From contig JAHDVF020001024.1 of NCBI GenBank assembly GCA_022606425.2, forward strand, positions 124,001-188,000: a stretch of 64,000 nucleotides of DNA, given 5' to 3'. Below, piece by piece: positions 1 to 10,064 of the stretch. This stretch comes from Lepidostoma basale (lineage: Eukaryota > Arthropoda > Insecta > Trichoptera > Lepidostomatidae). The notes beneath the pieces are model-generated. The model did not search any database. It was not told where the DNA came from and saw only the letters and a list, made by a program, of their open reading frames with translations. Positions within the stretch are counted from its first letter, which is position 1. Every line of letters starts with the position of its first letter. The position numbers and the translations under genes are program-made.

Positions 1-412
1 TGGATGCAGTTGATGGCTCTAAGCTTAGCCTTAAATCCTGCTCATCTATAATTACTTTAAGAGCCTTGCTAACAACATTATTTTCATCACTGAGCATAAT
101 GTGTGTAGAGCCTTTGGCTAGAGGGCTTATGACCATGTTACTAAAGTCATCTGCAAAGGTTACATCAATTAAAGGCGATAGCTCTACCAGCCTTAAAGGC
201 AGTACGATATCTTTACCAAAATCTATTGATACGGTGACTGGAGCCGAACGTGTTATTTCTAGTGGAATGTAGAGTTCATAATATTCAAAGTCGATTGTTT
301 TATCGGTTTTTATTACTGGGGTTACCTCCGTATTAGGCTGTGTACAGCTACCTAGTAGCAATACCATAAAAGCTGTAAAAAGTAGCTTTAGCATCGTTTT
401 GTTGAATATCAT
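1..412 (-). CDS. Surface lipoprotein, N-terminal part (runs off window start)
   Basis: The reading frame starts at the ATG at 412, with AAGGAGA about 8 nt upstream, and stays open to position 1, so the 3' end lies outside the window. The first residues are a signal peptide with hydrophobic core and lipobox ending in LLLGSC, which predicts a lipid-anchored exported protein. The following ~110 residues resemble the N-terminal part of the lipoprotein at 8820-10064: both carry a beta-strand-rich stretch with a shared GKDIV-P-L-E/R motif. It is therefore probably a paralogue with Ig-like repeats. Function is unknown. The two paralogues are on the same strand and bracket the defence island. Confidence 0.8.
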   Translation of the reverse strand, partial: MIFNKTMLKLLFTAFMVLLLGSCTQPNTEVTPVIKTDKTIDFEYYELYIPLEITRSAPVTVSIDFGKDIVLPLRLVELSPLIDVTFADDFSNMVISPLAKGSTHIMLSDENNVVSKALKVIIDEQDLRLSLEPSTAS

Positions 413-608
413 GTGGTGTTCTCCTTTTTTGATCTATTGAGGATCAGGGTAGCGACTAAGAACTTATTAGTCAATGATCGTAGCATCGATTTATTTAAAC
501 TAAAATGTTGCGTAGTATTAAATTGTTTATTATCTATAATATTTTAATTCTAGAATTCGTAACAATGCTTTACAAAAAACAGATAAGCATATAGTCTCAT
601 ACTATATT
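413..608. promoter_or_regulatory. Divergent intergenic region between lipoprotein and type IIG gene
   Basis: This AT-rich spacer separates the minus-strand lipoprotein from the plus-strand restriction gene. At 454-472 there is an inverted repeat with 6-bp arms (GACTAA / TTAGTC) and a 7-nt loop. On the minus strand it lies in the probable leader or promoter of the lipoprotein, near a TTGACT hexamer. On the plus strand TTTACA at 569-574 lies upstream of TATAGT (590-595, spacer only 15) and CATACT (598-603, ending 5 nt before the ATG), so the plus-strand promoter is not resolved. No ribosome binding site precedes the ATG at 609. Confidence 0.35.
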
Positions 609-3600
609 ATGAGCACTACAATCATTACCATCACCCCTTATGTCGATAACACCCTCTACGACGCCAACTTTTTTAACAATAGCTTGCGTTACCGTGCTTT
701 AGATGCCTATGCTGATGAGATAGGGCTTAAGTTTGATGAGCTAAAGGCACTTTGGGCTAGTAATACCTATGAAAAAATGAGCGAGGCCGAGCTAGAAAAC
801 AAGCTGATACAGCCTGTTTTATCCCTTTTAAATTGGAACTTTACGGTTCAAGATAGCCGTACGGTGCATGGCCAAAACCAACGCCCCGACTACGTTCTGT
901 TTAGTTGCATAGATGATGAGAGGGAGTATCAAGAGGGTAACTACGAATCGCCCCACCTTTACTGTGAGGCCAAGGCATGGAGCATCGACCTTGATGCACG
1001 CGACAGTCAAAACCGCTCGCCCTACTACCAGCTGATTAACTACATGAATGCGGGGCGCAGGTATCAATCAATTTTAACTAATGGCCGGCAGTGGCAGTTG
1101 GTGGATACCACCGAGCTTACATCGCACAAAAAACGGGTCATCTTCAATTTAGAGGCGATTATTAATAATGATAGCGATGACGACTTTGCCCTGTTTTATC
1201 TGCTGCTTAATGCTAAAACCTTTTTAAAACAGGGTAGTAAAGCAAGCCTGCATCAAACCCTTGAGCAGAGGGATGCCTTAGCCCGTAGCGATTTAAAGGA
1301 GAATTTAAAGGATGCCATTTTTGGTAGAGGCTACAGGGAGTCGGTTTTTGAGCAGATAGGCATGGTGCTCTATCAGCAATATCCCTCTGAGAGCTTTGAT
1401 CTGCTGCACCAAAACGGCATCTATTTTTTGTTTAGAGTGCTCTTTGTCGCCTTTTTTGAGGACCAAAATTGGGATGTGATGAGCAAACATAAAAAATATC
1501 CCGACCACTCATTGCGTAGCATCATTATTAAGGCAGAAAAAGAGGCCGATGGGGCCGACTTCAATATCAACAAAGATTTGTACGAGCTATTTGAGATACT
1601 CGACAAAGGTAAACCGCGTTACGATATACCCCTGCTTAATGGTGGGCTGTTTGACATGGCAAGCGATAGGGCGACCCTGCTTGAGCATGGCGATGCGTTT
1701 TTTAATAATGCTATTATTAAGGCTATCTTTAAAACGCTTTTTTATCATTATGATGATGAGCGCCAAAAAGAGGTGCGGTCTGACTTTAAAGGTCTAAACC
1801 CTAGACACATGGGTGAAATTTATGAGGGCCTACTAGAGTGCCGTTTTAGGTTGGCCGATGAAGAGCTGCTCTATGTAGAGTATGACACCAAAGAGGGGCT
1901 AACCAATGGCTACTATGATGGCTATGATGGTGCAACTATTGATAATAAAAAGATTAAAGCAAAAAGAACCATTGCCATTCATCAATTTTACATGGACAAA
2001 GGCAACCTGATGCGTAAGCAGACGGGTAGCTACTACACGCCCCCTATGCTAAGCAGCTATTTGGCTAAGGGTGGTATCGACCGGCTAATCGACGTTAAAA
2101 AAGTCTCTCCTATCGATATTAAAATGGTCGACCCTGCCTGCGGTAGTGGCCACCTGTTGCTTGATGCACTAGACTACCTGACGGGCCGGTGCCTAACCGA
2201 CGTGGCACTGTTTGATAGCCTAAAGCCTGTTTTGTTAGATGAGCGGGCTAAAATTGAGGCCAACCTTAAGGGCTTTAATGAGCACCCCATTATTAGCGAC
2301 GAGCAGATTATTAGGCGGCTCATCATGAAAAAAGCGGTTTATGGGGTAGACATTAATAGCTTTTCGGTAGAGATTACCAAGCTATCGCTATGGCTTAACA
2401 CCTTTATTTTTGGCACACCTTTAAGCTTGATTGAGCATCATATTGTCTGTGGTAACGCCTTAATGGGCACCGACCTGCAAAGCTTTGAGCAGTTTTTTAA
2501 GCTAGATGCTACCCATGAGCTTTTTAACGATGCCATTGCCGAACGCTACGAGGGGCTAAAAGAGAAGTTTTTGCTGTTAAACGATGTTAAAGATACCACT
2601 AAGGCCGAGATAGAGCAGAGCAAGGCGCTAATGGCGAGCATACAGCCCGATTTAGATGCCCTAAATGGCTTGCTGAATCAACAAAATGTGCTAGAGCTAC
2701 AACTATCACGGGCCAGCCTGCTTAAAGGGCCACAACGCAAGGCGATGGTGGAGGTGGTAAACCAACTAATTAGCCGTGTGCGTAACGATGGACAGCATCT
2801 TATTGATTTATCGGCCGAGTTACCCCCTACGGGCGAAAAATTTGTTAACTACCAAGTATGCTTTCCTGAGGTTTTTAGTAGAGAGGCTAGCGGTTTCGAT
2901 TTAGTAATTGCCAACCCGCCATGGGAAAAAACCAAGTTTGAAGAGCCACTCTTTTTTGCCCAACTGCACAGTAGGTACAGAGGCATGAGCAATAAAGATA
3001 AGGCCACCTTTAAAAGTAACTGGCTATTTAAAGCATGGATGAAAAAACGCTACGACGATGAGAAGCAGAGGGTAGAGCTAGCCAACGCCTACTACAAACA
3101 GCACTACCCGCTAAGCCGTGGGGCAGGCGATGGCAACCTGTACCGCTTTTTTGTAGAGCGGGCATGGCAGCTGCTTAACAGCACCGGTAACGTTAGCTTT
3201 GTGGTGCCCACCGGGCTACTGACCGACGATGGGGGCGAAGGCTTGAGAAGGGCGATGGCTAGTGCCCACCCGCTTATTTATAGCCTAAACTTTGAAAATA
3301 GGGGCCATGCCTTCTTCCCTGATGTGGATAGCCGCTACAAGTTTGGGCTAAGCCAAATGGATAAAACCGGCGACCCTACGGTGCCGGTACGCACGCTGTT
3401 TATGCAGTACAACCCGCTAACAACAGCACAGCCAACGCTACCGTGGATAGGCTACCCCTTTAGCTTGGTACAAAAACTAAGCCCCAAAAACCTGGCCTTT
3501 TTGGAGGTACAATGCCAGCTAGATTTGGATTTATATGCCCGTGCAGTGCAGCTTTATAAAGGCCTGCAAAGCGATTGGCTAGACTTTAGAAGTGAGCTGC

Positions 3601-4334
3601 ATTCAACTTTTCATAAGCACCTGTTTGTTGAGCCTGCTGATAAGGTAGAGGGCTTACTACCGCTGTATGCTGGGGCAAATATTCATCAGTATAATGATCA
3701 ATATGCACCGATAGAGCAATGGATTGATCCTGTACGACTAAGAGAGCACCTAGGCCATGCCAATTTTGAACAACCGCGTATATCATTTAGGGGAATAGCC
3801 CGAGATACCGACGAACGCACCATGATATGCGCCATGCTACCCCCCAACAGCCAAATGAAACGTAATATGATAGCCCTTCCCGAGCCAATAGAAAAGCAAC
3901 TCTTTTTTATGGCCGTAGCCAATAGCATGGTTTACGACTATTTTATACGCTTTAGTGTGGGTATTGATGTAACAAAAAGTATTGTTATGCGTATGCCTAT
4001 ACCCCAGCCCACGCTAGCCCAGCTGCAAAGCCCTACCAGCCCCTACAACCAGCTGGTCGGCAAGGCGCTGTTATTGTGTGCCTACCACAACCCCATAACC
4101 TTTAGCCCCCTACTAGGGCAGTTTGGCCTAAGCCCCGCCCAGATACCGCCTACCGCCAAGCAGTACGACCACCTACTGGTAAGCATAGACCACGCCGTGG
4201 CCCGCCTGTACCACATAACCCGTGCCGAGCTTGCCCACCTGGCCAGCCCCACCTATTTTAAGGTGCTAAACAATAAACGGCCTGCTTATGTTAAATTACT
4301 TATTGACAGCTATGAAGATGGGGAGGGGGAATAG
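609..4334 (+). CDS. Type IIG restriction-modification enzyme (nuclease-methyltransferase fusion)
   Basis: This 1241-residue protein joins an endonuclease and an adenine-N6 methyltransferase in one chain. Near the N-terminus D94 followed by E120-x-K122 fits a PD-(D/E)xK nuclease core. Methylase motif I is DPACGSGHLL from residue 508 (S-adenosylmethionine binding), and the catalytic motif IV is NPPW at 769-772. The remaining ~450 residues should be the target-recognition part. Length and layout match Eco57I-type or other type IIG enzymes; a BREX-type PglX-like methylase is less likely because the N-terminal nuclease motif is present. No ribosome binding site precedes the ATG. The last 58 codons are duplicated downstream (see repeats). 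The target sequence cannot be read from the protein. Confidence 0.9.
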   Translation: MSTTIITITPYVDNTLYDANFFNNSLRYRALDAYADEIGLKFDELKALWASNTYEKMSEAELENKLIQPVLSLLNWNFTVQDSRTVHGQNQRPDYVLFSCIDDEREYQEGNYESPHLYCEAKAWSIDLDARDSQNRSPYYQLINYMNAGRRYQSILTNGRQWQLVDTTELTSHKKRVIFNLEAIINNDSDDDFALFYLLLNAKTFLKQGSKASLHQTLEQRDALARSDLKENLKDAIFGRGYRESVFEQIGMVLYQQYPSESFDLLHQNGIYFLFRVLFVAFFEDQNWDVMSKHKKYPDHSLRSIIIKAEKEADGADFNINKDLYELFEILDKGKPRYDIPLLNGGLFDMASDRATLLEHGDAFFNNAIIKAIFKTLFYHYDDERQKEVRSDFKGLNPRHMGEIYEGLLECRFRLADEELLYVEYDTKEGLTNGYYDGYDGATIDNKKIKAKRTIAIHQFYMDKGNLMRKQTGSYYTPPMLSSYLAKGGIDRLIDVKKVSPIDIKMVDPACGSGHLLLDALDYLTGRCLTDVALFDSLKPVLLDERAKIEANLKGFNEHPIISDEQIIRRLIMKKAVYGVDINSFSVEITKLSLWLNTFIFGTPLSLIEHHIVCGNALMGTDLQSFEQFFKLDATHELFNDAIAERYEGLKEKFLLLNDVKDTTKAEIEQSKALMASIQPDLDALNGLLNQQNVLELQLSRASLLKGPQRKAMVEVVNQLISRVRNDGQHLIDLSAELPPTGEKFVNYQVCFPEVFSREASGFDLVIANPPWEKTKFEEPLFFAQLHSRYRGMSNKDKATFKSNWLFKAWMKKRYDDEKQRVELANAYYKQHYPLSRGAGDGNLYRFFVERAWQLLNSTGNVSFVVPTGLLTDDGGEGLRRAMASAHPLIYSLNFENRGHAFFPDVDSRYKFGLSQMDKTGDPTVPVRTLFMQYNPLTTAQPTLPWIGYPFSLVQKLSPKNLAFLEVQCQLDLDLYARAVQLYKGLQSDWLDFRSELHSTFHKHLFVEPADKVEGLLPLYAGANIHQYNDQYAPIEQWIDPVRLREHLGHANFEQPRISFRGIARDTDERTMICAMLPPNSQMKRNMIALPEPIEKQLFFMAVANSMVYDYFIRFSVGIDVTKSIVMRMPIPQPTLAQLQSPTSPYNQLVGKALLLCAYHNPITFSPLLGQFGLSPAQIPPTAKQYDHLLVSIDHAVARLYHITRAELAHLASPTYFKVLNNKRPAYVKLLIDSYEDGEGE

Positions 4335-4342
4335 GGGGTATG
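4151..4342 (+). repeat. Tail repeat copy 1 (native 3' end of the type IIG gene)
   Basis: These 192 bp encode the C-terminal ~60 residues of the type IIG protein plus the bases just after its stop. The same sequence recurs at 5261-5452 with no indels and about 11 differences, and at 7616-7788 with about 8 differences plus a 1-bp deletion over the comparable part. Here the element contains TTGACA at 4303-4308, but the position equivalent to the -10 box reads GGGAAT, a poor promoter. The ATG at 4340 opens only an 8-codon frame that ends at 4366. Confidence 0.95.
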
Positions 4343-4373
4343 GATAAGAAAAAAGAAAAGGGGTAAAAAAGGA

Positions 4374-5153
4374 ATGGATAAGAGAATTGAAATACACGAA
4401 AGTGCATTACTTAATGACGTATTTAATGATAGTGGCTATGTTTTAGGCTTTACAAATGAAACCTTTGCAAACTTTATTAAAAGAGTGCTAAAGGTTGACC
4501 CTTATATTGATGAGCATTTAACTAAGGAGTCTTCCAAGGGTAAAAAACTACGCCTCATTTTTGATAGCTACACATCAACTAATGTTGTTAAACTGCTTGA
4601 GGCGTTGTTAGATTATGCTGATGCAATGACCATTGAGATTAGCCGACGCAATGAAGTGGAGGCTATCATTACCAAGTATGGCGGTAAATCATACAAGGAC
4701 AAAGATGAGTTTAGTCTTAGTGGTTTAACCAATAATAGCGCTTATAAAAAAGTAGAGAACTATATTAAAGATAATCTAACTAAAGAGCCACTGCTATGCC
4801 TTGATAGGACTCATACCTTAGCAACCCATATTATGGTTAACCTATGTAAGGAAACGGAAATAGCAGTGTACAAAAATAATAAAGAAGATACAAAGCCTGT
4901 AGGATGTTTGTACGAAGAGTTTATTGAGTCTAAAAAAAGAATCCTAGATAGAAGTATGAGCGAATCTTTTATTGAACAAGGGTTGCTTCACCTATTAGGC
5001 AAAGATTTTAGTAATATACGTAACAATCATAGCTATGCCCATGCTAATAAGACCTTTTTACCATCGGCTGATGCAGCTTATATTGTTAAGTCTACAATGG
5101 TAGCGTTAGAGTATCTCGTTAGCAAGTTCCCCTTGACAGCCCCTGCTCAATAA
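4374..5153 (+). CDS. Abortive-infection family protein with C-terminal HEPN-like domain
   Basis: The 259-residue product has an N-terminal helical domain (about residues 10-90; pattern VLGFTNETF followed by a dibasic region) also found in the small protein at 8451-8756. Its C-terminal domain (about 145-255) carries RNNHSYAH and a terminal ALEYL helix, as in the Abi_C family. HEPN domains with R-x4-6-H motifs are commonly RNases in abortive infection and toxin systems; RNase activity here is inference. The ATG at 4374 directly follows AAAAAAGGA. It lies 40 bp behind the type IIG stop, so it is probably cotranscribed and acts as an accessory or back-up defence gene. A promoter-like sequence sits in its last codons. 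Confidence 0.75.
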   Translation: MDKRIEIHESALLNDVFNDSGYVLGFTNETFANFIKRVLKVDPYIDEHLTKESSKGKKLRLIFDSYTSTNVVKLLEALLDYADAMTIEISRRNEVEAIITKYGGKSYKDKDEFSLSGLTNNSAYKKVENYIKDNLTKEPLLCLDRTHTLATHIMVNLCKETEIAVYKNNKEDTKPVGCLYEEFIESKKRILDRSMSESFIEQGLLHLLGKDFSNIRNNHSYAHANKTFLPSADAAYIVKSTMVALEYLVSKFPLTAPAQ

Positions 5154-5161
5154 TATAGCAT
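5133..5161 (+). promoter_or_regulatory. Promoter-like sequence inside the 3' end of the Abi gene
   Basis: TTGACA (5133-5138), a 17-nt spacer and TAGCAT (5156-5161) overlap the last codons of the abortive-infection gene. A start site here would read into the tail-repeat copy 2 region. The same coding end is found as a remnant at about 8384-8416, where it forms a perfect consensus promoter. Seen by eye only; activity is inferred. Confidence 0.5.
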
Positions 5162-5178
5162 AGCTTATTAAGAAGGAA

Positions 5179-5209
5179 TATCAAAATAGGTGCTATCTAT
5201 TACAAGCCA
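5179..5209 (+). repeat. Leader repeat a (31 bp) before tail repeat copy 2
   Basis: This 31-bp stretch matches 7588-7618 at 28 of 31 positions. In both places it lies shortly upstream of a tail-repeat copy and in the same reading frame (both would read VLSITS). Here the frame begins with GTG at 5190; in the other copy this codon is GTA. It shows that copies 2 and 3 descend from one composite unit and not from two independent duplications of the type IIG end. Confidence 0.8.
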
Positions 5210-5444
5210 GTCTGTACTTAGCAATGATACCAATATACTACTTTACCCCTCTATTCTACCTACCCCCAAGCAGTACGACCACCTACTGGTAAGCATAGAC
5301 CATGCCGTGGCCCGCCTGTACCACATAACCCGTACCGAGCTTGCCCACCTGGCCAGCCCCACCTATTTTAAGGTGCTAAACAACAAATGGCCAGCCTACG
5401 TTAAATTACTTATTGACAGCTATGAAGATGTGGAGGTAGAATAG
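5190..5444 (+). pseudogene. Detached type IIG C-terminal fragment
   Basis: The open frame of 84 codons consists of about 25 unrelated residues followed by the last ~58 residues of the type IIG protein, with changes such as R-to-W and GEGE-to-VEVE at the end. There is no nuclease, methylase or target-recognition part. It has a possible GTG start but the nearest AAGGA is about 12 nt away. It is best read as a duplicated gene end kept for its DNA (recombination site or promoter). Whether it is translated is unknown. Confidence 0.75.
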
Positions 5445-5452
5445 GGGGTATG
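5261..5452 (+). repeat. Tail repeat copy 2
   Basis: It aligns without gaps to 4151-4342 (offset 1110 bp, a multiple of three). Recombination between the two would delete exactly the abortive-infection gene and leave the type IIG frame intact. Unlike copy 1 it contains TAGAAT at 5437-5442, 18 nt after TTGACA. Confidence 0.93.
5413..5442 (+). promoter_or_regulatory. Promoter embedded in tail repeat copy 2
   Basis: TTGACA (5413-5418), 18-nt spacer, TAGAAT (5437-5442). The -10 box ends 7 nt before the ATG at 5450, so transcription would start at or next to that ATG and give a leaderless message. The corresponding site in copy 1 has no -10 box, which suggests that this function was acquired after duplication. 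Confidence 0.55.
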
Positions 5453-6133
5453 AATTGGATAGGAATTATGAGTAGTGAGTGGGTAGGAATTTTAATATCG
5501 GGCTTGCTGGGTTTAGTGGGTATTGGTATTAGTGTATGGAGCTTAAAAATTTCAATTAAAAATAGGAATGAAGATAGAGCATTAATTTTTGATGATACCA
5601 TTAATAAGTTAGACCGTATGATTAGGGACTATAATGGTCAGGCTGGAAATTTTATCTATCTAGATGACAAAAAAACGATGCATGCAAGAGATACAATGAA
5701 TACCAAGGATAATATGATGCCTAGCATGCTTCAAAGTATCATGCCTAATAAAGAACACAGAGATGAGCAGGAAAGTCAAGCAGAAAAATATAGAAAAAGC
5801 CATATAGGGTTTATAGATGAACAAGCACATACTAAAAAAGAGATGGAAACGCTCTTTCATGACATAGTAATTAAGCTAACAAGTTTGGTTACCCATAATT
5901 GTAACAAGTTATACTACCACCAACATAAAGAAAAGCTTCGTAAGATTATCGGTGAGCTTTATATTATATATTACCATGATGAAAATCTGCATTCTAATAG
6001 AAAGAGTCGAACGAAAGTCAACTATAAAAATGTTTCTGACAAAGATGCATTTGCTTCTGACAATAATTTATTTAAGGTTGATTGTGATTCATTAAAGACT
6101 ACCCTCATTAAGGGTAAGTTAAGGAGTAGCTGA
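5450..6133 (+). CDS. One-pass membrane protein of unknown function, accessory region
   Basis: I do not recognise the family. The 227-residue product begins with a short N-terminal transmembrane helix (about residues 10-30, rich in G, L, I and V), followed by a basic stop-transfer KISIKNRNE and a polar, largely helical cytoplasmic part. The ATG at 5450 fits leaderless initiation; an alternative ATG at 5468 has AGGA just upstream. The N-terminal layout matches the next gene (6193-6630), so the two are probably related. Placement between tail repeats and HEPN-type genes suggests a membrane-anchored defence component, but that is inference only. Confidence 0.65.
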   Translation: MNWIGIMSSEWVGILISGLLGLVGIGISVWSLKISIKNRNEDRALIFDDTINKLDRMIRDYNGQAGNFIYLDDKKTMHARDTMNTKDNMMPSMLQSIMPNKEHRDEQESQAEKYRKSHIGFIDEQAHTKKEMETLFHDIVIKLTSLVTHNCNKLYYHQHKEKLRKIIGELYIIYYHDENLHSNRKSRTKVNYKNVSDKDAFASDNNLFKVDCDSLKTTLIKGKLRSS

Positions 6134-6192
6134 ATAATAACCCATATCATTTACTGATAGATAGTTATACTAATGAAGGTGTGAAATAGAGT

Positions 6193-6630
6193 ATGAGTTT
6201 AGAGTTAGTAGGTATAATTATAACAATTGCTCTTGGAATATGGGGTATTGCAGATAGAAGGAAAGAGCATCAACTCTCTTTTGAGAGAGAGCTAAATGAA
6301 CTTAAAGGTGACATTGATGAACTAGGAGGTGATATAAAAAAATCAAATAAATTTAGAGTTGAAAAAGCTAACTTAATTAACATATCACTAAATTGTTCTA
6401 TGAATGGGATTTATCAGAAATATCAGGATGAAATAAAAGAATATTATGAGCGTGAGGAGTCGATTAAGAATAGGCTGAATGGAATAAACAGAAAACTAAA
6501 GACTTTAGTTGATAGTAACAAAAGCTATTCATTTTATCATCTCAAAAAAAAGGAAATAAAAGATATTGAACAGCAACTTAAACTGTTTATTGATAGCTAT
6601 GAAGTTAAGGAGAGTAGGATAGAGGGATGA
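6193..6630 (+). CDS. Small one-pass membrane protein with coiled-coil, accessory region
   Basis: The 145-residue product has an N-terminal transmembrane helix (about residues 4-20), a basic patch at RRKEH and then a charged region rich in E and K that is likely a coiled coil (about 25-130). It resembles the first part of the preceding gene. The last ~16 residues (KLFIDSYEV...) mimic the end of the type IIG protein (KLLIDSYED...), and the DNA there aligns with the tail repeat, so the gene seems to have captured that end by recombination. It overlaps the next gene by ATGA at 6627. Function is unknown. Confidence 0.6.
   Translation: MSLELVGIIITIALGIWGIADRRKEHQLSFERELNELKGDIDELGGDIKKSNKFRVEKANLINISLNCSMNGIYQKYQDEIKEYYEREESIKNRLNGINRKLKTLVDSNKSYSFYHLKKKEIKDIEQQLKLFIDSYEVKESRIEG
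6576..6629 (+). repeat. Decayed tail repeat copy 4 (last ~50 bp only)
   Basis: The sequence ending at the ATG at 6627 aligns with the last ~50 bp of the tail repeat, including TTTATTGATAGCTATGAAG and a GTAGGATAGAGGG end, at roughly three of four positions by eye. It lies directly before a gene whose relative at 7786 follows copy 3, and both genes begin ATGAAATTA. This points to a common ancestral junction, later split by insertion of the two membrane-protein genes. Confidence 0.6.
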
Positions 6631-7565
6631 AATTAAACCATAACAAATACGAGCTTGATGCTATTTTAAAGGCATTTGTAACTGAAGAAACCATCTATTA
6701 TGAGAATGATGAGGAGACGATAGTATCTGTTTTAGGCATGGATGGTAGGCAATTATACAGCTTTTTAATGGATAAGTGCCAGCTAGATTATCTTACTACG
6801 CTATATTCTTTTAAGGATGAAAGAAAGCACTATAGCGATAAGCTACAGTGGCTAATTGAAAACAACTATATTACGGCCGATGGGGCGGCATGCCAGCTTG
6901 ACCATAGGCGTATAGAAGAGTTAAAGGATTTTTATATTGACGGCAAGGATTTTTTAATTGATTTTTATGAAGAATGTCCGCAAGAGCTTGTTATAGCAGT
7001 AACAAAGGCACTACTGGACAAGGCTACCCAGCAGGAAAAGCCTATAGCACAGATGTTAAAAAATAGAATAGAGAGCATTATAACTAAGTATGGCCATAGC
7101 CTTGAGGCCGAGCAAAAGCCTATTGCAACAGTTAAGCAATATAACGATCAACTGGAGCACATAAAAAAAAATAAGAGTGCTACACCGCAATATCTTTTAG
7201 GTAATTTAACTGATGTTGCAATTTTTAAATTAAAATATATATGCACCTATATCCAACTACCACAGGATCAAATTACAGACAATAAAGGGAAAATACATGT
7301 TAGCGGTATTTTGTTTGAAAATTTATTAAAACATAACCCCCCTGTTTTTAGTGATAAAGAAGAGGATATACTAATAAAAAGGGTGCTTACAAGCCTCTTC
7401 AGTAGGGAGTTTAGCCAAGTGCGTAATAGCCAAGCACATCCTAATGTAATTAGAGAAGAGAGTCCTATGAATCCGTTAGAGGCAACATACATTATTGATA
7501 CCGTATTAAGTAGTTTGGAATATCTTGATTCAAAAATTCTAACCCTTACCCCTCCCTCTCTTTAA
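6627..7565 (+). CDS. HEPN-like protein with distinct N-terminal domain (Abi_C type)
   Basis: The 312-residue product has two parts. The N-terminal ~130 residues (pattern LGMDGRQLYSF, then a helical region) are shared with the protein at 7786-8370. The C-terminal ~130 residues resemble the end of the abortive-infection protein at 4374-5153, including RNSQAH (R-x4-H) and a final helix SSLEYLDSK, as in HEPN/Abi_C proteins. RNase or RNA-binding activity is inferred from the family motif. Start at ATG 6627, overlapping the previous stop, implies translational coupling. The C-rich/G-rich stretch at 7572-7586 just after the stop can form a 5-bp hairpin without a T run. Confidence 0.7.
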   Translation: MKLNHNKYELDAILKAFVTEETIYYENDEETIVSVLGMDGRQLYSFLMDKCQLDYLTTLYSFKDERKHYSDKLQWLIENNYITADGAACQLDHRRIEELKDFYIDGKDFLIDFYEECPQELVIAVTKALLDKATQQEKPIAQMLKNRIESIITKYGHSLEAEQKPIATVKQYNDQLEHIKKNKSATPQYLLGNLTDVAIFKLKYICTYIQLPQDQITDNKGKIHVSGILFENLLKHNPPVFSDKEEDILIKRVLTSLFSREFSQVRNSQAHPNVIREESPMNPLEATYIIDTVLSSLEYLDSKILTLTPPSL

Positions 7566-7587
7566 TAGTAGCCCCTCGATAGGGGGG

Positions 7588-7618
7588 TATTAAAATAGGT
7601 ACTATCGATTACAAGCCA
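7588..7618 (+). repeat. Leader repeat b (31 bp) fused to tail repeat copy 3
   Basis: It matches 5179-5209 at 28 of 31 positions. Here it runs directly into the tail repeat. The joint falls on the shared bases CCA, so a deletion at short homology between the leader and the tail explains why copy 3 is shorter than copy 2. Confidence 0.8.
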
Positions 7619-7788
7619 CCTGCAGGTAAGCATAGACCACGCCGTGGCCCGCCTATACCACATAACCCGTGCCGAGCTTGCCCACCTGGCCAGCCCCACC
7701 TATTTTAAGGTGCTAAATAATAAACGGCCTGCTTATGTTAAATTACTTATTGACAGCTATCAAGATATGGTGGTAGAATAGGGGTATG
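7616..7788 (+). repeat. Tail repeat copy 3
   Basis: It aligns to 4169-4342 of the type IIG gene with about 8 substitutions and one missing G near the end. The reading frame of the type IIG tail is still open to the TAG at 7779-7781. It lies 3447 bp from copy 1, a multiple of three, so recombination between them would also keep the type IIG frame. It contains the same TAGAAT as copy 2, which copy 1 lacks. Confidence 0.92.
7750..7779 (+). promoter_or_regulatory. Promoter embedded in tail repeat copy 3
   Basis: TTGACA (7750-7755), 18-nt spacer, TAGAAT (7774-7779), then 6 nt to the ATG at 7786. The geometry predicts a leaderless transcript for the downstream gene. It is the same arrangement as at 5413-5442. 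Confidence 0.55.
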
Positions 7789-8370
7789 AAATTAGAAAAC
7801 GCAACAAAAATAATGGATGCTATGTTAGAGGCATTTGTAAGAGAGACATGCCTTGAGGATGACGGGTACAATACCCACATTGAAATGAGAATATTAGGCA
7901 TGAATGGTGTACAGCTATATGATTTTTTTATTGAGTGTAAATTAAATTATATTGATGTGTTACTGCAACTACAAAACGAAACGGGGCTTTACAATTCGGT
8001 GATAGATACTCTAATTACCAACGAGCTTATTACAGAGGACTTTAAGAAAAATAAGCTTGGCTATAGGCAGAGTCAGACTTTAGATAAGATGTATATTGAC
8101 TATAGACAATTGTTAATTGATTTTCATGAATATTATCCGATGAATGACACTTTGGCTCTAACAAGTGCACTACTAACTAAAGCTGATGCATTGAACATAA
8201 TAGTTGAATGCCGTGATGATCTAGAGACCTTCATTAAACAAAACAGCACGAGTATAGAGGGAGAGCTCCAAATTAATCGGTTATTAGATGACTACCAGCA
8301 AGGAATTGATTACTACAAGGCATGGAAGAAGACTAAAAGTGATAACTTTGAGGATGATATACCCTATTAG
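7786..8370 (+). CDS. Truncated paralogue of the 6627 protein (N-terminal domain only)
   Basis: The 194-residue product matches the N-terminal part of the 6627-7565 protein (shared AFV, LGMNGVQLYDF, and LIDFHEYYP against LIDFYEECP) and lacks the C-terminal HEPN-like part. After its stop, bases ~8384-8416 resemble the 3' end of the abortive-infection gene, so the missing C-terminal half was probably lost by deletion. It may still make a folded N-terminal domain, for example an antitoxin-like or regulatory partner of the full-length protein; this is speculative. There is no ribosome binding site, and the promoter lies in the upstream tail repeat. Confidence 0.6.
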   Translation: MKLENATKIMDAMLEAFVRETCLEDDGYNTHIEMRILGMNGVQLYDFFIECKLNYIDVLLQLQNETGLYNSVIDTLITNELITEDFKKNKLGYRQSQTLDKMYIDYRQLLIDFHEYYPMNDTLALTSALLTKADALNIIVECRDDLETFIKQNSTSIEGELQINRLLDDYQQGIDYYKAWKKTKSDNFEDDIPY

Positions 8371-8383
8371 TAGGATGCACTAT

Positions 8384-8416
8384 AAGTAAGTTTCCTCTTG
8401 ACAGCACCCTAACAAA
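8384..8416 (+). pseudogene. Remnant of an abortive-infection gene 3' end
   Basis: About 30 bp align with the last codons of the gene at 4374-5153 (AAGTT-CC-CTTGACAGC followed by CCCT). No open frame is left. The remnant supplies the -35 box for the next gene. Confidence 0.55.
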
Positions 8417-8426
8417 GCGATATAAT
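8398..8426 (+). promoter_or_regulatory. Perfect consensus sigma-70 promoter
   Basis: TTGACA (8398-8403), exactly 17 nt, TATAAT (8421-8426). Both hexamers match consensus at every position. The transcript would start near 8433 and reach the GAAGGAG ribosome binding site at 8440-8446. The -35 box comes from the remnant Abi gene end. Confidence 0.85.
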
Positions 8427-8450
8427 TTAAAATTATTGCGAAGGAGTATC

Positions 8451-8756
8451 ATGAGTAACATTACCCCAGCCGACAAGGCTATTATCAAAGAGGCCTTTAT
8501 GACAGGCGACCAAGTGTTAGACTTTAACAACCTTACCTTTAGGCGTTTTACCGAAGACATTATCGGCCTAGAAAGCTCCGATATTATTTACAAAAATTTA
8601 GCTACCGACCAATGTGGCACCATCTTGTCATTCATTATCGACCATAGCCAAAGTGCCGATCTTAAAGCCATCCTTAAAGGCCTGCTGTTTTACACCAAAA
8701 AAATGCAAATTGTTGTAAGCCAAAAAGAGCAAATTGAGCTGATGCTACAAGCCTAA
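8451..8756 (+). CDS. Stand-alone Abi N-terminal domain protein
   Basis: The 101-residue product resembles the N-terminal domain of the abortive-infection protein at 4374 (VLDFNNLTFRRF against VLGFTNETFANF, followed by a similar helix pattern). It has no HEPN-like part. ATG 8451 is chosen over an upstream in-frame TTG at 8436 because GAAGGAG ends 4 nt before it. It has its own perfect consensus promoter, unlike its neighbours, so it may be made at a higher level. A role as a dominant partner or antitoxin for the full-length protein is possible but not shown. Confidence 0.65.
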   Translation: MSNITPADKAIIKEAFMTGDQVLDFNNLTFRRFTEDIIGLESSDIIYKNLATDQCGTILSFIIDHSQSADLKAILKGLLFYTKKMQIVVSQKEQIELMLQA

Positions 8757-8772
8757 TCTTTTAAACAATCAA

Positions 8773-8810
8773 AAGCCCCCATAGCCCTATTAAAAGAGCG
8801 GTGAGGGCTT
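8773..8810. terminator. Bidirectional hairpin terminator
   Basis: Arms AAGCCCCCA (8773-8781) and TGAGGGCTT (8802-8810) pair with one mismatch between the convergent genes ending at 8756 and 8820. On the minus strand the hairpin is followed by TTTTGATTGTTT, a better terminator for the lipoprotein gene than for the plus-strand gene. Confidence 0.55.
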
Positions 8811-8819
8811 AGGTTTATC

Positions 8820-10064
8820 CTATTCTACCGTTACCGTGATCATTGTTTGATCATAAATATCAAATCCACCTCCATAGTTAGGGCCACCATCGTTGCCAGT
8901 AAGCTTATTGTAAGACATAAAGCGATCAGGAGTATCAGTTGGGCTGTTTCCTCCCCTCATCTTAAATACCTTAGTAAGGCTAGTTCCTTCGATGCTACTC
9001 CAAGCATCGTTGGGGTTAGTAACACTAGCATGCCAGTTACGCATAGCGTGGTCAATATTATCTCTGGCTACGGTAAAGGCATCTTCCCCCGTAACGGTTA
9101 CGGTAATATTGCCTATTTGCCCGCTGGCTATGGTTAGTTCGGTAGGCTCGTGGCTTACTTGTATATCCCATACCTTTAAGTTGAGGGTATTGCTCTTGCT
9201 ACCATAACGATCAACAAGATGGATCACAGATTCACCACGTGAGAGTGCCGATAGGCTGTTATCGGTAGAGTTAAAGGTAGCAAGAGCGTTGTTGCCACTA
9301 TTAGTGATCAACTGGTAAGGCCCTTCAATATCTTTTCCTACGGTGAATGCCAATGTTTTATTGCTAAACTTGCCGTTCAGTTGAAGAATAAGCTGGTTTG
9401 CATTGGCCGCACTGGGTGTACCGGTAGGCTTAATGGTAAATGCAAGGTCAAGCTCTTGTACATCAATATGGGCTGTGTCACTTTCGTAGCCATTGGCATC
9501 AATAATAACTAATTCGGTTTTCCCTTTTTTTAGTCCAGTAATGGCTACTTCGTTGTTAGATTTAATTTCAGCCTTAACAATGCTTCCATCATCAATACGA
9601 ACGCTATAGGGAGCAGCATTGTCGGCACTGGTTGTAAAGTTAACTCTTACCTCTCTGTTAACTTTTGCTGAAATATGGTTGTCGATATCGATATCAAGTT
9701 TGCGTGTCGTGTTTCTAATATCGATGGCATTACTAATGATGCCATTTTGTGATCTTAAATAAAGCTTGATGTGGCCTAGGTTTTGAGCCGTAATGGTTAT
9801 TTCAGTAGGGTTTATAGCATCATCCAGCTGGGTGGTTAGAACATTTGCTATATGAGGTACGGTTACTATTTCTAACGGAGTTACAATATCCTTGCCTAAT
9901 GAAAGAGAGAGAGTTTTTGACAGATTAGTTTCATCAAGGTAGAAGGTTATATCATCTTCAGTATTGATCTGTATGTTATGGTCTAATAGTTCCCCCTTTG
10001 GGTTTGGTTGTTTGCATGCGTTAAAAGTAAGGCAGGCCATGGTGAGCAGTAGCAGTTTCGTCAT
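8820..10064 (-). CDS. Surface lipoprotein with Ig-like repeats
   Basis: The 414-residue product has a signal peptide with lipobox ending in FNAC, so it is exported and lipid-anchored. The mature part is beta-rich and made of several ~80-residue modules with recurring LTFxVGKDI-P-Y and ITxLKKGKTELVI-D patterns, as in bacterial Ig-like (Big_2-type) domains. AGGAGA lies 7 nt before the ATG. The N-terminal part resembles the lipoprotein fragment at 1-412. The C-terminal ~100 residues (W-rich, G-rich) look different from the repeats and may be a separate head domain. Surface adhesion is a guess from the architecture. Confidence 0.75.
   Translation of the reverse strand: MTKLLLLTMACLTFNACKQPNPKGELLDHNIQINTEDDITFYLDETNLSKTLSLSLGKDIVTPLEIVTVPHIANVLTTQLDDAINPTEITITAQNLGHIKLYLRSQNGIISNAIDIRNTTRKLDIDIDNHISAKVNREVRVNFTTSADNAAPYSVRIDDGSIVKAEIKSNNEVAITGLKKGKTELVIIDANGYESDTAHIDVQELDLAFTIKPTGTPSAANANQLILQLNGKFSNKTLAFTVGKDIEGPYQLITNSGNNALATFNSTDNSLSALSRGESVIHLVDRYGSKSNTLNLKVWDIQVSHEPTELTIASGQIGNITVTVTGEDAFTVARDNIDHAMRNWHASVTNPNDAWSSIEGTSLTKVFKMRGGNSPTDTPDRFMSYNKLTGNDGGPNYGGGFDIYDQTMITVTVE

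What the first reader, a model, noticed from the sequence alone, without database searches (positions are those of the whole stretch)
4151..7788. The 3' end of a restriction-modification gene is repeated as a cassette element in front of different accessory defence genes
Seen: 192 bp covering the last ~58 codons of the type IIG gene recur at 5261-5452 (no gaps, ~94% identical) and 7616-7788 (~8 changes, one deletion), with a decayed copy at 6576-6629. Each copy ends at the ATG of another gene (Abi-like region, 5450, 6627, 7786). The copies keep their frame. Offsets of 1110 and 3447 bp are multiples of three. Inference: the tail acts as a recombination site at which downstream genes are added, swapped or lost while the restriction enzyme stays intact, like a cassette array without an integrase. 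An alternative is decay of tandem full-length restriction genes.
Basis: partly seen in the sequence, partly recalled or inferred. Interest (0 to 1): 0.88.

Follow-up and report, generated by a model that had tools for sequence, protein, structure and literature searches.

The report
Restriction-gene tail repeated before defence-like genes
The last 190 or so bases of a bacterial restriction-enzyme gene are repeated in front of a row of unusual defence-like genes; it looks as if new genes were slotted in behind the restriction gene by ordinary DNA recombination, though nobody has seen it move.

Summary
The repeats are real: copy 2 is 94% identical over 197 bp, copy 4 is 92% over 185 columns, copy 3 is a relic of about 55 bp. 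The tail is the conserved C-terminus of a type IIG family, so the copies derive from the enzyme gene. The genes behind them are diverged paralogues (25-32% protein identity) of two families, one weakly Abi_C/HEPN-like, one membrane-type; two are truncated. Flanks stay about 90% alike while cargo DNA hardly aligns, which fits modules added by recombination in the flanks. Two of 69 IIG relatives tested, both of one Pseudomonadota branch, repeat the IIG end as direct repeats (157 and 46 bp) around a toxin-type module; two more cases are doubtful; one relative has tandem full-length IIGs. Copies 2 and 4, not the genuine gene end, carry an 11/12 sigma-70-like promoter just before the next ATG. Precedents: restriction genes inserting with long target duplication, and CDI/Rhs orphan arrays. 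Movement was not shown: the genome search tool did not complete (29 calls), so no strain comparison exists. First reading partly supported; new variant of a known kind.

The parts
609..4334 (+). Intact type IIG restriction-methyltransferase gene (1241 aa)
   Evidence: PADLOC PDLC03613 E 7e-200; PF07669 E 6e-23; closest proteins about 34-36% identical
4149..4345 (+). Tail copy 1: genuine 3' end of the IIG gene plus 11 bp
   Evidence: conserved C-terminus in alignment A1 of 25 sequences, the window's included
4374..5153 (+). Cargo A1, 259 aa, weakly Abi_C-like C-terminus (RNNHSYAH)
   Evidence: PF14355 17.8 bits, below its cut-off of 24; 25% over 195 aa with A2, E 7e-14; no homologue at E<=0.001
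5179..5209 (+). 31-bp flank fX behind A1
   Evidence: 90% identical to 7588-7618
5259..5455 (+). Orphan tail copy 2; promoter-like TTGACA-18-TAGAAT at 5413-5442
5450..6133 (+). Cargo B, 227 aa; N-terminal membrane segment (by eye)
   Evidence: 25% with C, E about 1e-5
6193..6630 (+). Cargo C, 145 aa, B-like; its last codons run into tail relic copy 3
6578..6631 (+). Decayed tail copy 3, at the ATG of A2
6627..7565 (+). Cargo A2, 312 aa, homologous to A1 (RNSQAH)
   Evidence: low-confidence model; HEPN structures among the top matches
7588..7618 (+). 31-bp flank fX behind A2
7616..7799 (+). Orphan tail copy 4; promoter-like TTGACA-18-TAGAAT at 7750-7779
7786..8370 (+). Cargo A3, 194 aa, like the N-terminal part of A2, C-terminal part missing
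   Evidence: 32% over 181 aa with A2, E 5e-24
8398..8426 (+). Promoter-like TTGACA-17-TATAAT before A4
8451..8756 (+). Cargo A4, 101 aa, like the N-terminal part of A1, rest missing
   Evidence: 27% over 93 aa with A1, E 5e-8

Best explanation
The region 4149-8756 is a head-to-tail array behind an intact type IIG restriction gene. Most modules consist of a copy of that gene's 3' end, ending at the start codon of a toxin-like or Abi-like gene. The modules most likely came from related IIG loci that had other downstream genes, and were added by host homologous recombination in the manner of insertion with long target duplication; some modules have since decayed (copy 3, A3, A4). Shown: the anatomy, the direction (copies come from the enzyme gene), diverged cargo between conserved flanks, and similar direct repeats in two relatives. 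Inferred: the recombination route, the foreign origin of the modules, and that orphan tails are kept because their ends serve as promoter and start region of the next gene. The A genes most likely encode HEPN-type RNA-cutting proteins that kill or arrest the cell when restriction fails; this is inference from weak similarity.
For: Copies 94% and 92% alike beside cargo at 25-32% protein identity. The 31-bp flank fX behind both full A genes is 90% identical, so both sides of the variable gene are conserved. No other IIG-coding stretch above noise between 4335 and 10000. The tail is the conserved C-terminus of the family. Core codon changes of copies 2 and 4 against copy 1: 8 of 11 synonymous (p 0.0024), as if they had diverged inside working genes. 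Relatives: L018, a 157-bp repeat at 96% over the end of the IIG and the start of the next gene, around a short ORF; L025, a 46-bp repeat at 98% around a Pfam Zeta_toxin gene and a short ORF related to that of L018 (62% over 34 aa). Partial direct copies reaching within 15 bp of a gene's end: 4 of 69 IIG genes against 2 of 748 other genes in the same loci (p 0.0006). Of 20 downstream genes scanned (of 34 selected), 8 are toxin or defence types by their family names. On the + strand of 4335-8456 three promoter-like sites reach 11/12 or better against 0.13 expected, 0 of 500 shuffles.
Against: No strain or read shows gain, loss or exchange; the genome search did not complete 29 times. The synonymous excess depends on leaving out the last codons, chosen after seeing the data: with them it is 8 of 20 (p 0.16), and with one further change at 4155 that lay outside the compared stretch 8 of 12 in the core (p 0.0055) and 8 of 21 in all (p 0.20). 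The 4 of 69 rests on two doubtful upstream cases (L004, L031); with L018 and L025 alone p is 0.038, and 0.084 if two further non-IIG rows are also counted (a copy ending 26 bp from a stop, and an antisense frame over the same repeat). L018 and L025 lie on one fully supported Pseudomonadota branch, so they may not be independent. L018's repeat reaches 45 bp into the next gene, so the tail as such may not be special. Copy 4 lies further downstream than copy 3 but is better kept, so age does not simply rise along the array. L070 and L031 fit decay. The promoters of copies 2 and 4 are copies of one sequence and the region was chosen after seeing them; sites of 9/12 and more are no commoner than chance in 400-9000 (20 against 23.5). 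The Abi_C match is below its cut-off and the A2 model is poor (mean pLDDT 53).
Confidence: 0.48

Rival explanations
1. Decay of tandem full-length IIG-plus-cargo units: whole units were duplicated or imported, then the bodies of the later IIG genes were deleted, leaving 3' stubs.
For: L070 carries two full-length IIG genes in tandem at 74%; L031 has a frameshifted 235-bp tail at 80%, about 0.9 kb upstream of an intact IIG, with a transposase-like frame (by eye) before it. Explains the synonymous excess equally well.
Against: No IIG remnant other than the tails above noise between 4335 and 10000. Copies 2 and 4 share the left flank fX, so the same deletion end would be needed twice, or one deletion followed by duplication. 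L018 and L025 show short repeats around an insert with no second IIG body.
Confidence: 0.26
2. Tandem duplication of a tail-plus-A unit inside one lineage by unequal crossing-over, then divergence of A under selection while tails were homogenised by gene conversion.
For: A1, A2, A3 and A4, and B and C, are paralogues; differences between copies 1 and 2 are clustered, 5 within 20 bp (p 0.025 for the first 165 bp, 0.11 over all 197), as conversion tracts would be.
Against: Cargo at 25-32% protein identity beside flanks at 90-94% DNA identity needs conversion that stops at the gene borders.
Confidence: 0.15
3. The orphan tails are small genes: they encode a free C-terminal IIG domain (84 aa from GTG 5190) that regulates or partners the enzyme.
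For: The frame runs through flank and tail of copy 2; by eye copy 4 lacks 72 bp of it in frame; a promoter-like site of 10/12 at 5133-5161 lies upstream; 8 of 11 core changes are synonymous.
Against: Copy 4 has GTA where copy 2 has the GTG start; copy 3 is only about 55 bp; with all codons the synonymous excess is not significant.
Confidence: 0.1

Closest known systems
Insertion of restriction-modification genes with long target duplication (Nobusato et al. 2000; Furuta et al. 2010)
   Same: Inserted genes at restriction loci lie between direct repeats of the order of 100 bp (passages in PMC3874152, PMC3031569, PMC1643837). L018, with its 157-bp repeat, looks like such a case.
   Different: There the R-M genes are the reported insert; here the R-M gene's own end is the repeated target, toxin-like genes are the insert, and the repeat recurs in series. 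The 2000 paper was not looked up and the 2010 paper is not held; both are known to me only through citing passages.
Duplication of part of a PabI-family restriction gene in Helicobacter pylori
   Same: A 1577-bp duplicated segment holding part of a restriction gene, explained by recombination with incoming DNA (passages in PMC4615327).
   Different: It flanks a large integrative element, once; no array of small genes.
CDI/Rhs orphan toxin-immunity arrays
   Same: Displaced modules in tandem behind a main gene, many still carrying sequence homologous to it, proposed to arise by serial integration and to recombine with it (passages in PMC4927057).
   Different: There the module replaces the toxin end of the main protein and arrays often include transposase and integrase genes; here the enzyme's end is unchanged and the cargo is a separate gene.
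HEPN/Abi proteins linked to restriction systems (Anantharaman et al. 2013)
   Same: HEPN RNases in R-M neighbourhoods proposed as suicidal back-up; AbiJ has N-terminal domains joined to HEPN (abstract and passages in PMC3710099).
   Different: The passages seen speak of gene neighbourhood, not of repeated gene ends; Abi_C does not occur in the text.
Integron gene cassettes
   Same: Head-to-tail accessory genes, each with a repeated element (recalled).
   Different: The repeat here is coding sequence of the leading gene; no integrase family matched the 8 proteins scanned around the array; attC-like structure was not tested.

Membership tests
Type IIG restriction-modification enzyme | N6-adenine methylase core with NPPW motif in one chain with a restriction part | tested here: met
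   PF07669, and PADLOC REase_MTase_IIG over residues 47-1231; NPPW at 769-772 invariant in 25 sequences. Nuclease activity not testable here.
Insertion with long target duplication | Direct repeats of about 100 bp at both ends of the insert | tested here: met
   Copies 1/2 197 bp, copies 2/4 176 bp; L018 157 bp; L025 only 46 bp
[quoted passage not shown]
   No close relative found; the genome search unanswered in 29 tries
Integron or other site-specific cassette array | Integrase gene and recombination-site structure | tested here: inconclusive
   No integrase family among the 8 proteins scanned from 609-10064; other window genes were not scanned, the genome was not searchable, attC folding was not tested
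Abi_C abortive-infection proteins | Match to the family model at its curated cut-off | tested here: not met
   A1 17.8 bits against 24; A2 no match
HEPN superfamily | R-x4-6-H motif in a HEPN fold | tested here: inconclusive
   RNNHSYAH in A1, RNSQAH in A2 (motif recalled); HEPN entries at Foldseek ranks 1, 3, 7, 8, 12, best E 0.61, none at E<=0.001, model mean pLDDT 53
CDI/Rhs-type orphan array | Repeat runs into the toxin-coding end, so that recombination swaps the main protein's end | tested here: not met
   Copies 2 and 4 end in a stop codon before the cargo frame

The most novel reading that the evidence does not exclude
An integrase-free cassette array in which the 3' end of a restriction gene is both the homology handle for capturing defence genes and, after two base changes, a portable promoter and start site for each captured gene, so that a strain can stack and rotate suicide genes behind an unchanged restriction enzyme; a general habit of this IIG family.
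Probability: 0.22. Interest if true: 0.78.

Novelty: new variant of a known kind. Interest (0 to 1): 0.5.

Why it matters
If the 3' end of a restriction gene serves as a recombination handle, defence islands can grow beside R-M genes by ordinary recombination alone, and the repeats give a search signature: partial copies of a restriction gene's end beside it. In the small survey here that signature was 5 to 22 times as frequent at this IIG family as at neighbouring genes, depending on which doubtful cases are counted, on very small numbers (2-4 of 69 against 2-4 of 748). That makes the idea testable on public genomes.

Tried and rejected
Cargo relatives: A1 alone (E<=0.001) and a profile of A2, A1 and A3 (E<=1) against 5.8 billion proteins gave none; the profile in viral contigs none, A2 in plasmids none, A1 in phages one weak match, E 0.003. 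B, C and A4 were compared only with family libraries, without useful match. PDB sequence search: no match for the IIG at E<=0.001, one meaningless match for the A profile. Structure of A1 alone: mean pLDDT 39, not used. Tail DNA in plasmids: none. The genome-contig scan with the single IIG found nothing; the profile scan gave 79 loci.

Leads dropped: L074 32-bp match (AT-rich, inside an Mrr-type gene); L009 and L021 matches of 24-26 bp; L065 downstream repeats (low-complexity by eye). L004's 41-bp upstream repeat stays in the 4 of 69 although it may be an intergenic repeat. Six Borreliella loci (L071, L073, L076-L079) were set aside before the 69/748 count because their plasmids carry whole paralogues. 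Two L018 rows were left out of the 2 of 748: a copy ending 26 bp from a stop and an antisense frame over the same repeat; the effect of counting them is. Comparing 215 related IIG pairs showed in many that similarity ends near the stop codon, but in many it also begins near the start codon, so it only suggests that the gene moves as a unit.

The IIG tree puts the window on a long branch (2.19) beside 4 Thermodesulfobacteriota, 3 Myxococcota and 1 Bacteroidota rows and does not identify the host. No tRNA or Rfam match in the window.

Papers: 7 text searches answered. Nothing in the listings, abstract openings or passages that I saw described R-M gene ends repeated before defence genes; most listed papers were not opened, and the library lacks many journals.
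Full report
OBSERVATION. Copy 1 (4149-4345) is the true end of a 1241-aa reading frame at 609-4334; copy 2 (5259-5455) matches it at 185 of 197 positions without gaps; copy 4 (7616-7799) is 92.4% identical over 185 columns with two single-base gaps; copy 3 (6578-6631) is a relic, 80% over 55 columns against copy 2. With exact seeds of 14 and length 40 or more they are the only repeat family in the window. The tails have 49-53% G+C; A1, B, C, A2 and A3 have 30-36%, A4 40.5%, the whole IIG 46.6%.

THE LEADING GENE. It is a single-chain type IIG enzyme: PADLOC REase_MTase_IIG over residues 47-1231, Pfam Eco57I, NPPW motif. The closest proteins are 34-36% identical. On a tree the window sits on a long branch beside Thermodesulfobacteriota, Myxococcota and one Bacteroidota row. 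The tail peptide is the conserved C-terminus of the aligned family (25 sequences), so the copies derive from the enzyme gene and not the reverse.

THE CARGO. A1 (4374-5153) and A2 (6627-7565) are homologous over 195 aa (25%, E 7e-14); A3 (7786-8370) matches the N-terminal part of A2 (32%, E 5e-24) and A4 (8451-8756) that of A1 (27%, E 5e-8), both lacking the C-terminal part; B (5450-6133) and C (6193-6630) are related (25%, E about 1e-5). DNA before A4 resembles the end of A1 (p 0.001 by base shuffling) but not that of A2 (p 0.43), as if the end of an A gene had been left there. A1 touches Pfam Abi_C below its cut-off; A2 does not. Both carry R-x4-6-H motifs of the HEPN type (motif recalled). 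A low-confidence model of A2 (mean pLDDT 53) brings up HEPN structures at ranks 1, 3, 7, 8 and 12, none at E<=0.001. No protein homologue of A1 or of the A2/A1/A3 profile was found; B, C and A4 were compared only with family libraries. HEPN proteins are commonly linked to restriction systems and proposed as suicidal back-up (PMC3710099, abstract and passages).

FLANKS AGAINST CARGO. Behind both full A genes lies the same 31-bp stretch fX (90% identical) followed by a tail. By eye, copy 4's flank equals copy 2's with 72 bp missing between two CCA triplets. Cargo with only short stretches of DNA similarity thus sits between flanks about 90% alike. Plain divergence of a tandem duplication does not give that; import of modules with different cargo by recombination in the flanks does. 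Core codon differences from copy 1 are mostly synonymous (8 of 11, p 0.0024), as if the copies had diverged inside working genes. That is fragile: the compared stretch starts at 4170 and the core leaves out the last codons; with the change at 4155 it is 8 of 12 (p 0.0055), with the last codons 8 of 20 (p 0.16), with both 8 of 21 (p 0.20).

PROMOTER. Copies 2 and 4 carry TTGACA-18-TAGAAT (11/12) with the -10 element 6-7 bases before the ATG; the genuine gene end has GGGAAT there and gives no site; copy 3 has a weaker version with a 19-base spacer. On the + strand of 4335-8456, a region chosen after seeing the sites, three reach 11/12 or more against 0.13 expected (0 of 500 shuffles); for 10/12 or more it is 4 against 1.6 (p 0.1). 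Two of the three are copies of one sequence. Sites of 9/12 and more in 400-9000 are no more than chance (20 against 23.5). The tail ends of copies 1, 2 and 4 also hold AGGGG(G) before the ATG, a possible ribosome-binding site on read-through transcripts. Function is inferred.

RELATIVES. A profile scan gave 79 loci, a viral scan 5 more. A first test used 72 loci. In the control test, Borreliella set aside, 69 IIG genes and 748 other reading frames of the same loci were compared: direct partial copies reaching within 15 bp of the 3' end occur at 4 IIG genes (L004, L018, L025, L031) and 2 others (L054, 28 bp; the repeat protein in L027); p 0.0006. With L018 and L025 only, p is 0.038; counting also two L018 rows that I had left out, 0.0025 (4 of 69) or 0.084 (2 of 69). 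L018 (Comamonadaceae MAG): a 157-bp repeat at 96% spans the end of the IIG and the start of the next gene, around a short ORF. L025 (Thiomicrospira MAG): a 46-bp repeat at 98% flanks a Zeta_toxin gene and a short ORF; the two short ORFs are related (62% over 34 aa). Both belong to one Pseudomonadota branch of the tree. L031 and L004 have the copy upstream and are doubtful. L070 has two full-length IIGs in tandem at 74%. Of 34 selected downstream genes 20, picked by hand, were scanned: 8 are toxin or defence types by family name (L006, L013, L015, L052 AAA/AbiEii-like; L012 Fic; L025 Zeta; L035 DUF4145, my reading; L074 Mrr), 11 matched other families, 1 had no match.

MECHANISM AND RIVALS. The best account is serial insertion behind the IIG by homologous recombination with long target duplication, a pattern already described for restriction genes (PMC3874152, PMC3031569, PMC1643837, passages) and for part of a PabI-family gene (PMC4615327, passages), producing an array like the orphan modules of CDI/Rhs loci (PMC4927057, passages). 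The order of decay does not simply follow position: copy 4 is better kept than copy 3, which lies before it. Decay of tandem full-length units is the main rival; in-lineage duplication with gene conversion, and translated tails, follow. No step of movement was observed.

L018 and L025 are metagenome assemblies. Several tests were framed after seeing the data.

Noticed in passing
L057 (Helicobacter baculiformis), 27-832 bp behind the IIG stop: Three tandem units of about 270 bp with small antisense ORFs; one reads like a short hydrophobic peptide of a type I toxin (resemblance recalled, not tested).
   Followed up: partly
L070, 7141-11239 and 12725-16757: Two full-length type IIG genes in tandem, 74% identical, 1.5 kb apart.
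   Followed up: partly
window 4342-4383: ATGGATAAGA occurs twice, 32 bp apart, leaving a very short frame directly behind the IIG gene before A1.
   Followed up: no
window 7575-7600: GATAGGGGGGTATTAAAATAG before flank fX resembles the end of a tail copy; it may be a further relic (by eye).
   Followed up: no
Borreliella plasmids, hits H71, H72, H58: Fragments covering only the C-terminal 25-40% of the IIG protein; two are annotated as hypothetical proteins, one has no annotation.
   Followed up: no
window 8820-10064 (-): Reading frame of 414 aa with matches to a pilus N-terminal domain and BiPBP_C beside lepA; apparently unrelated to the array.
   Followed up: no
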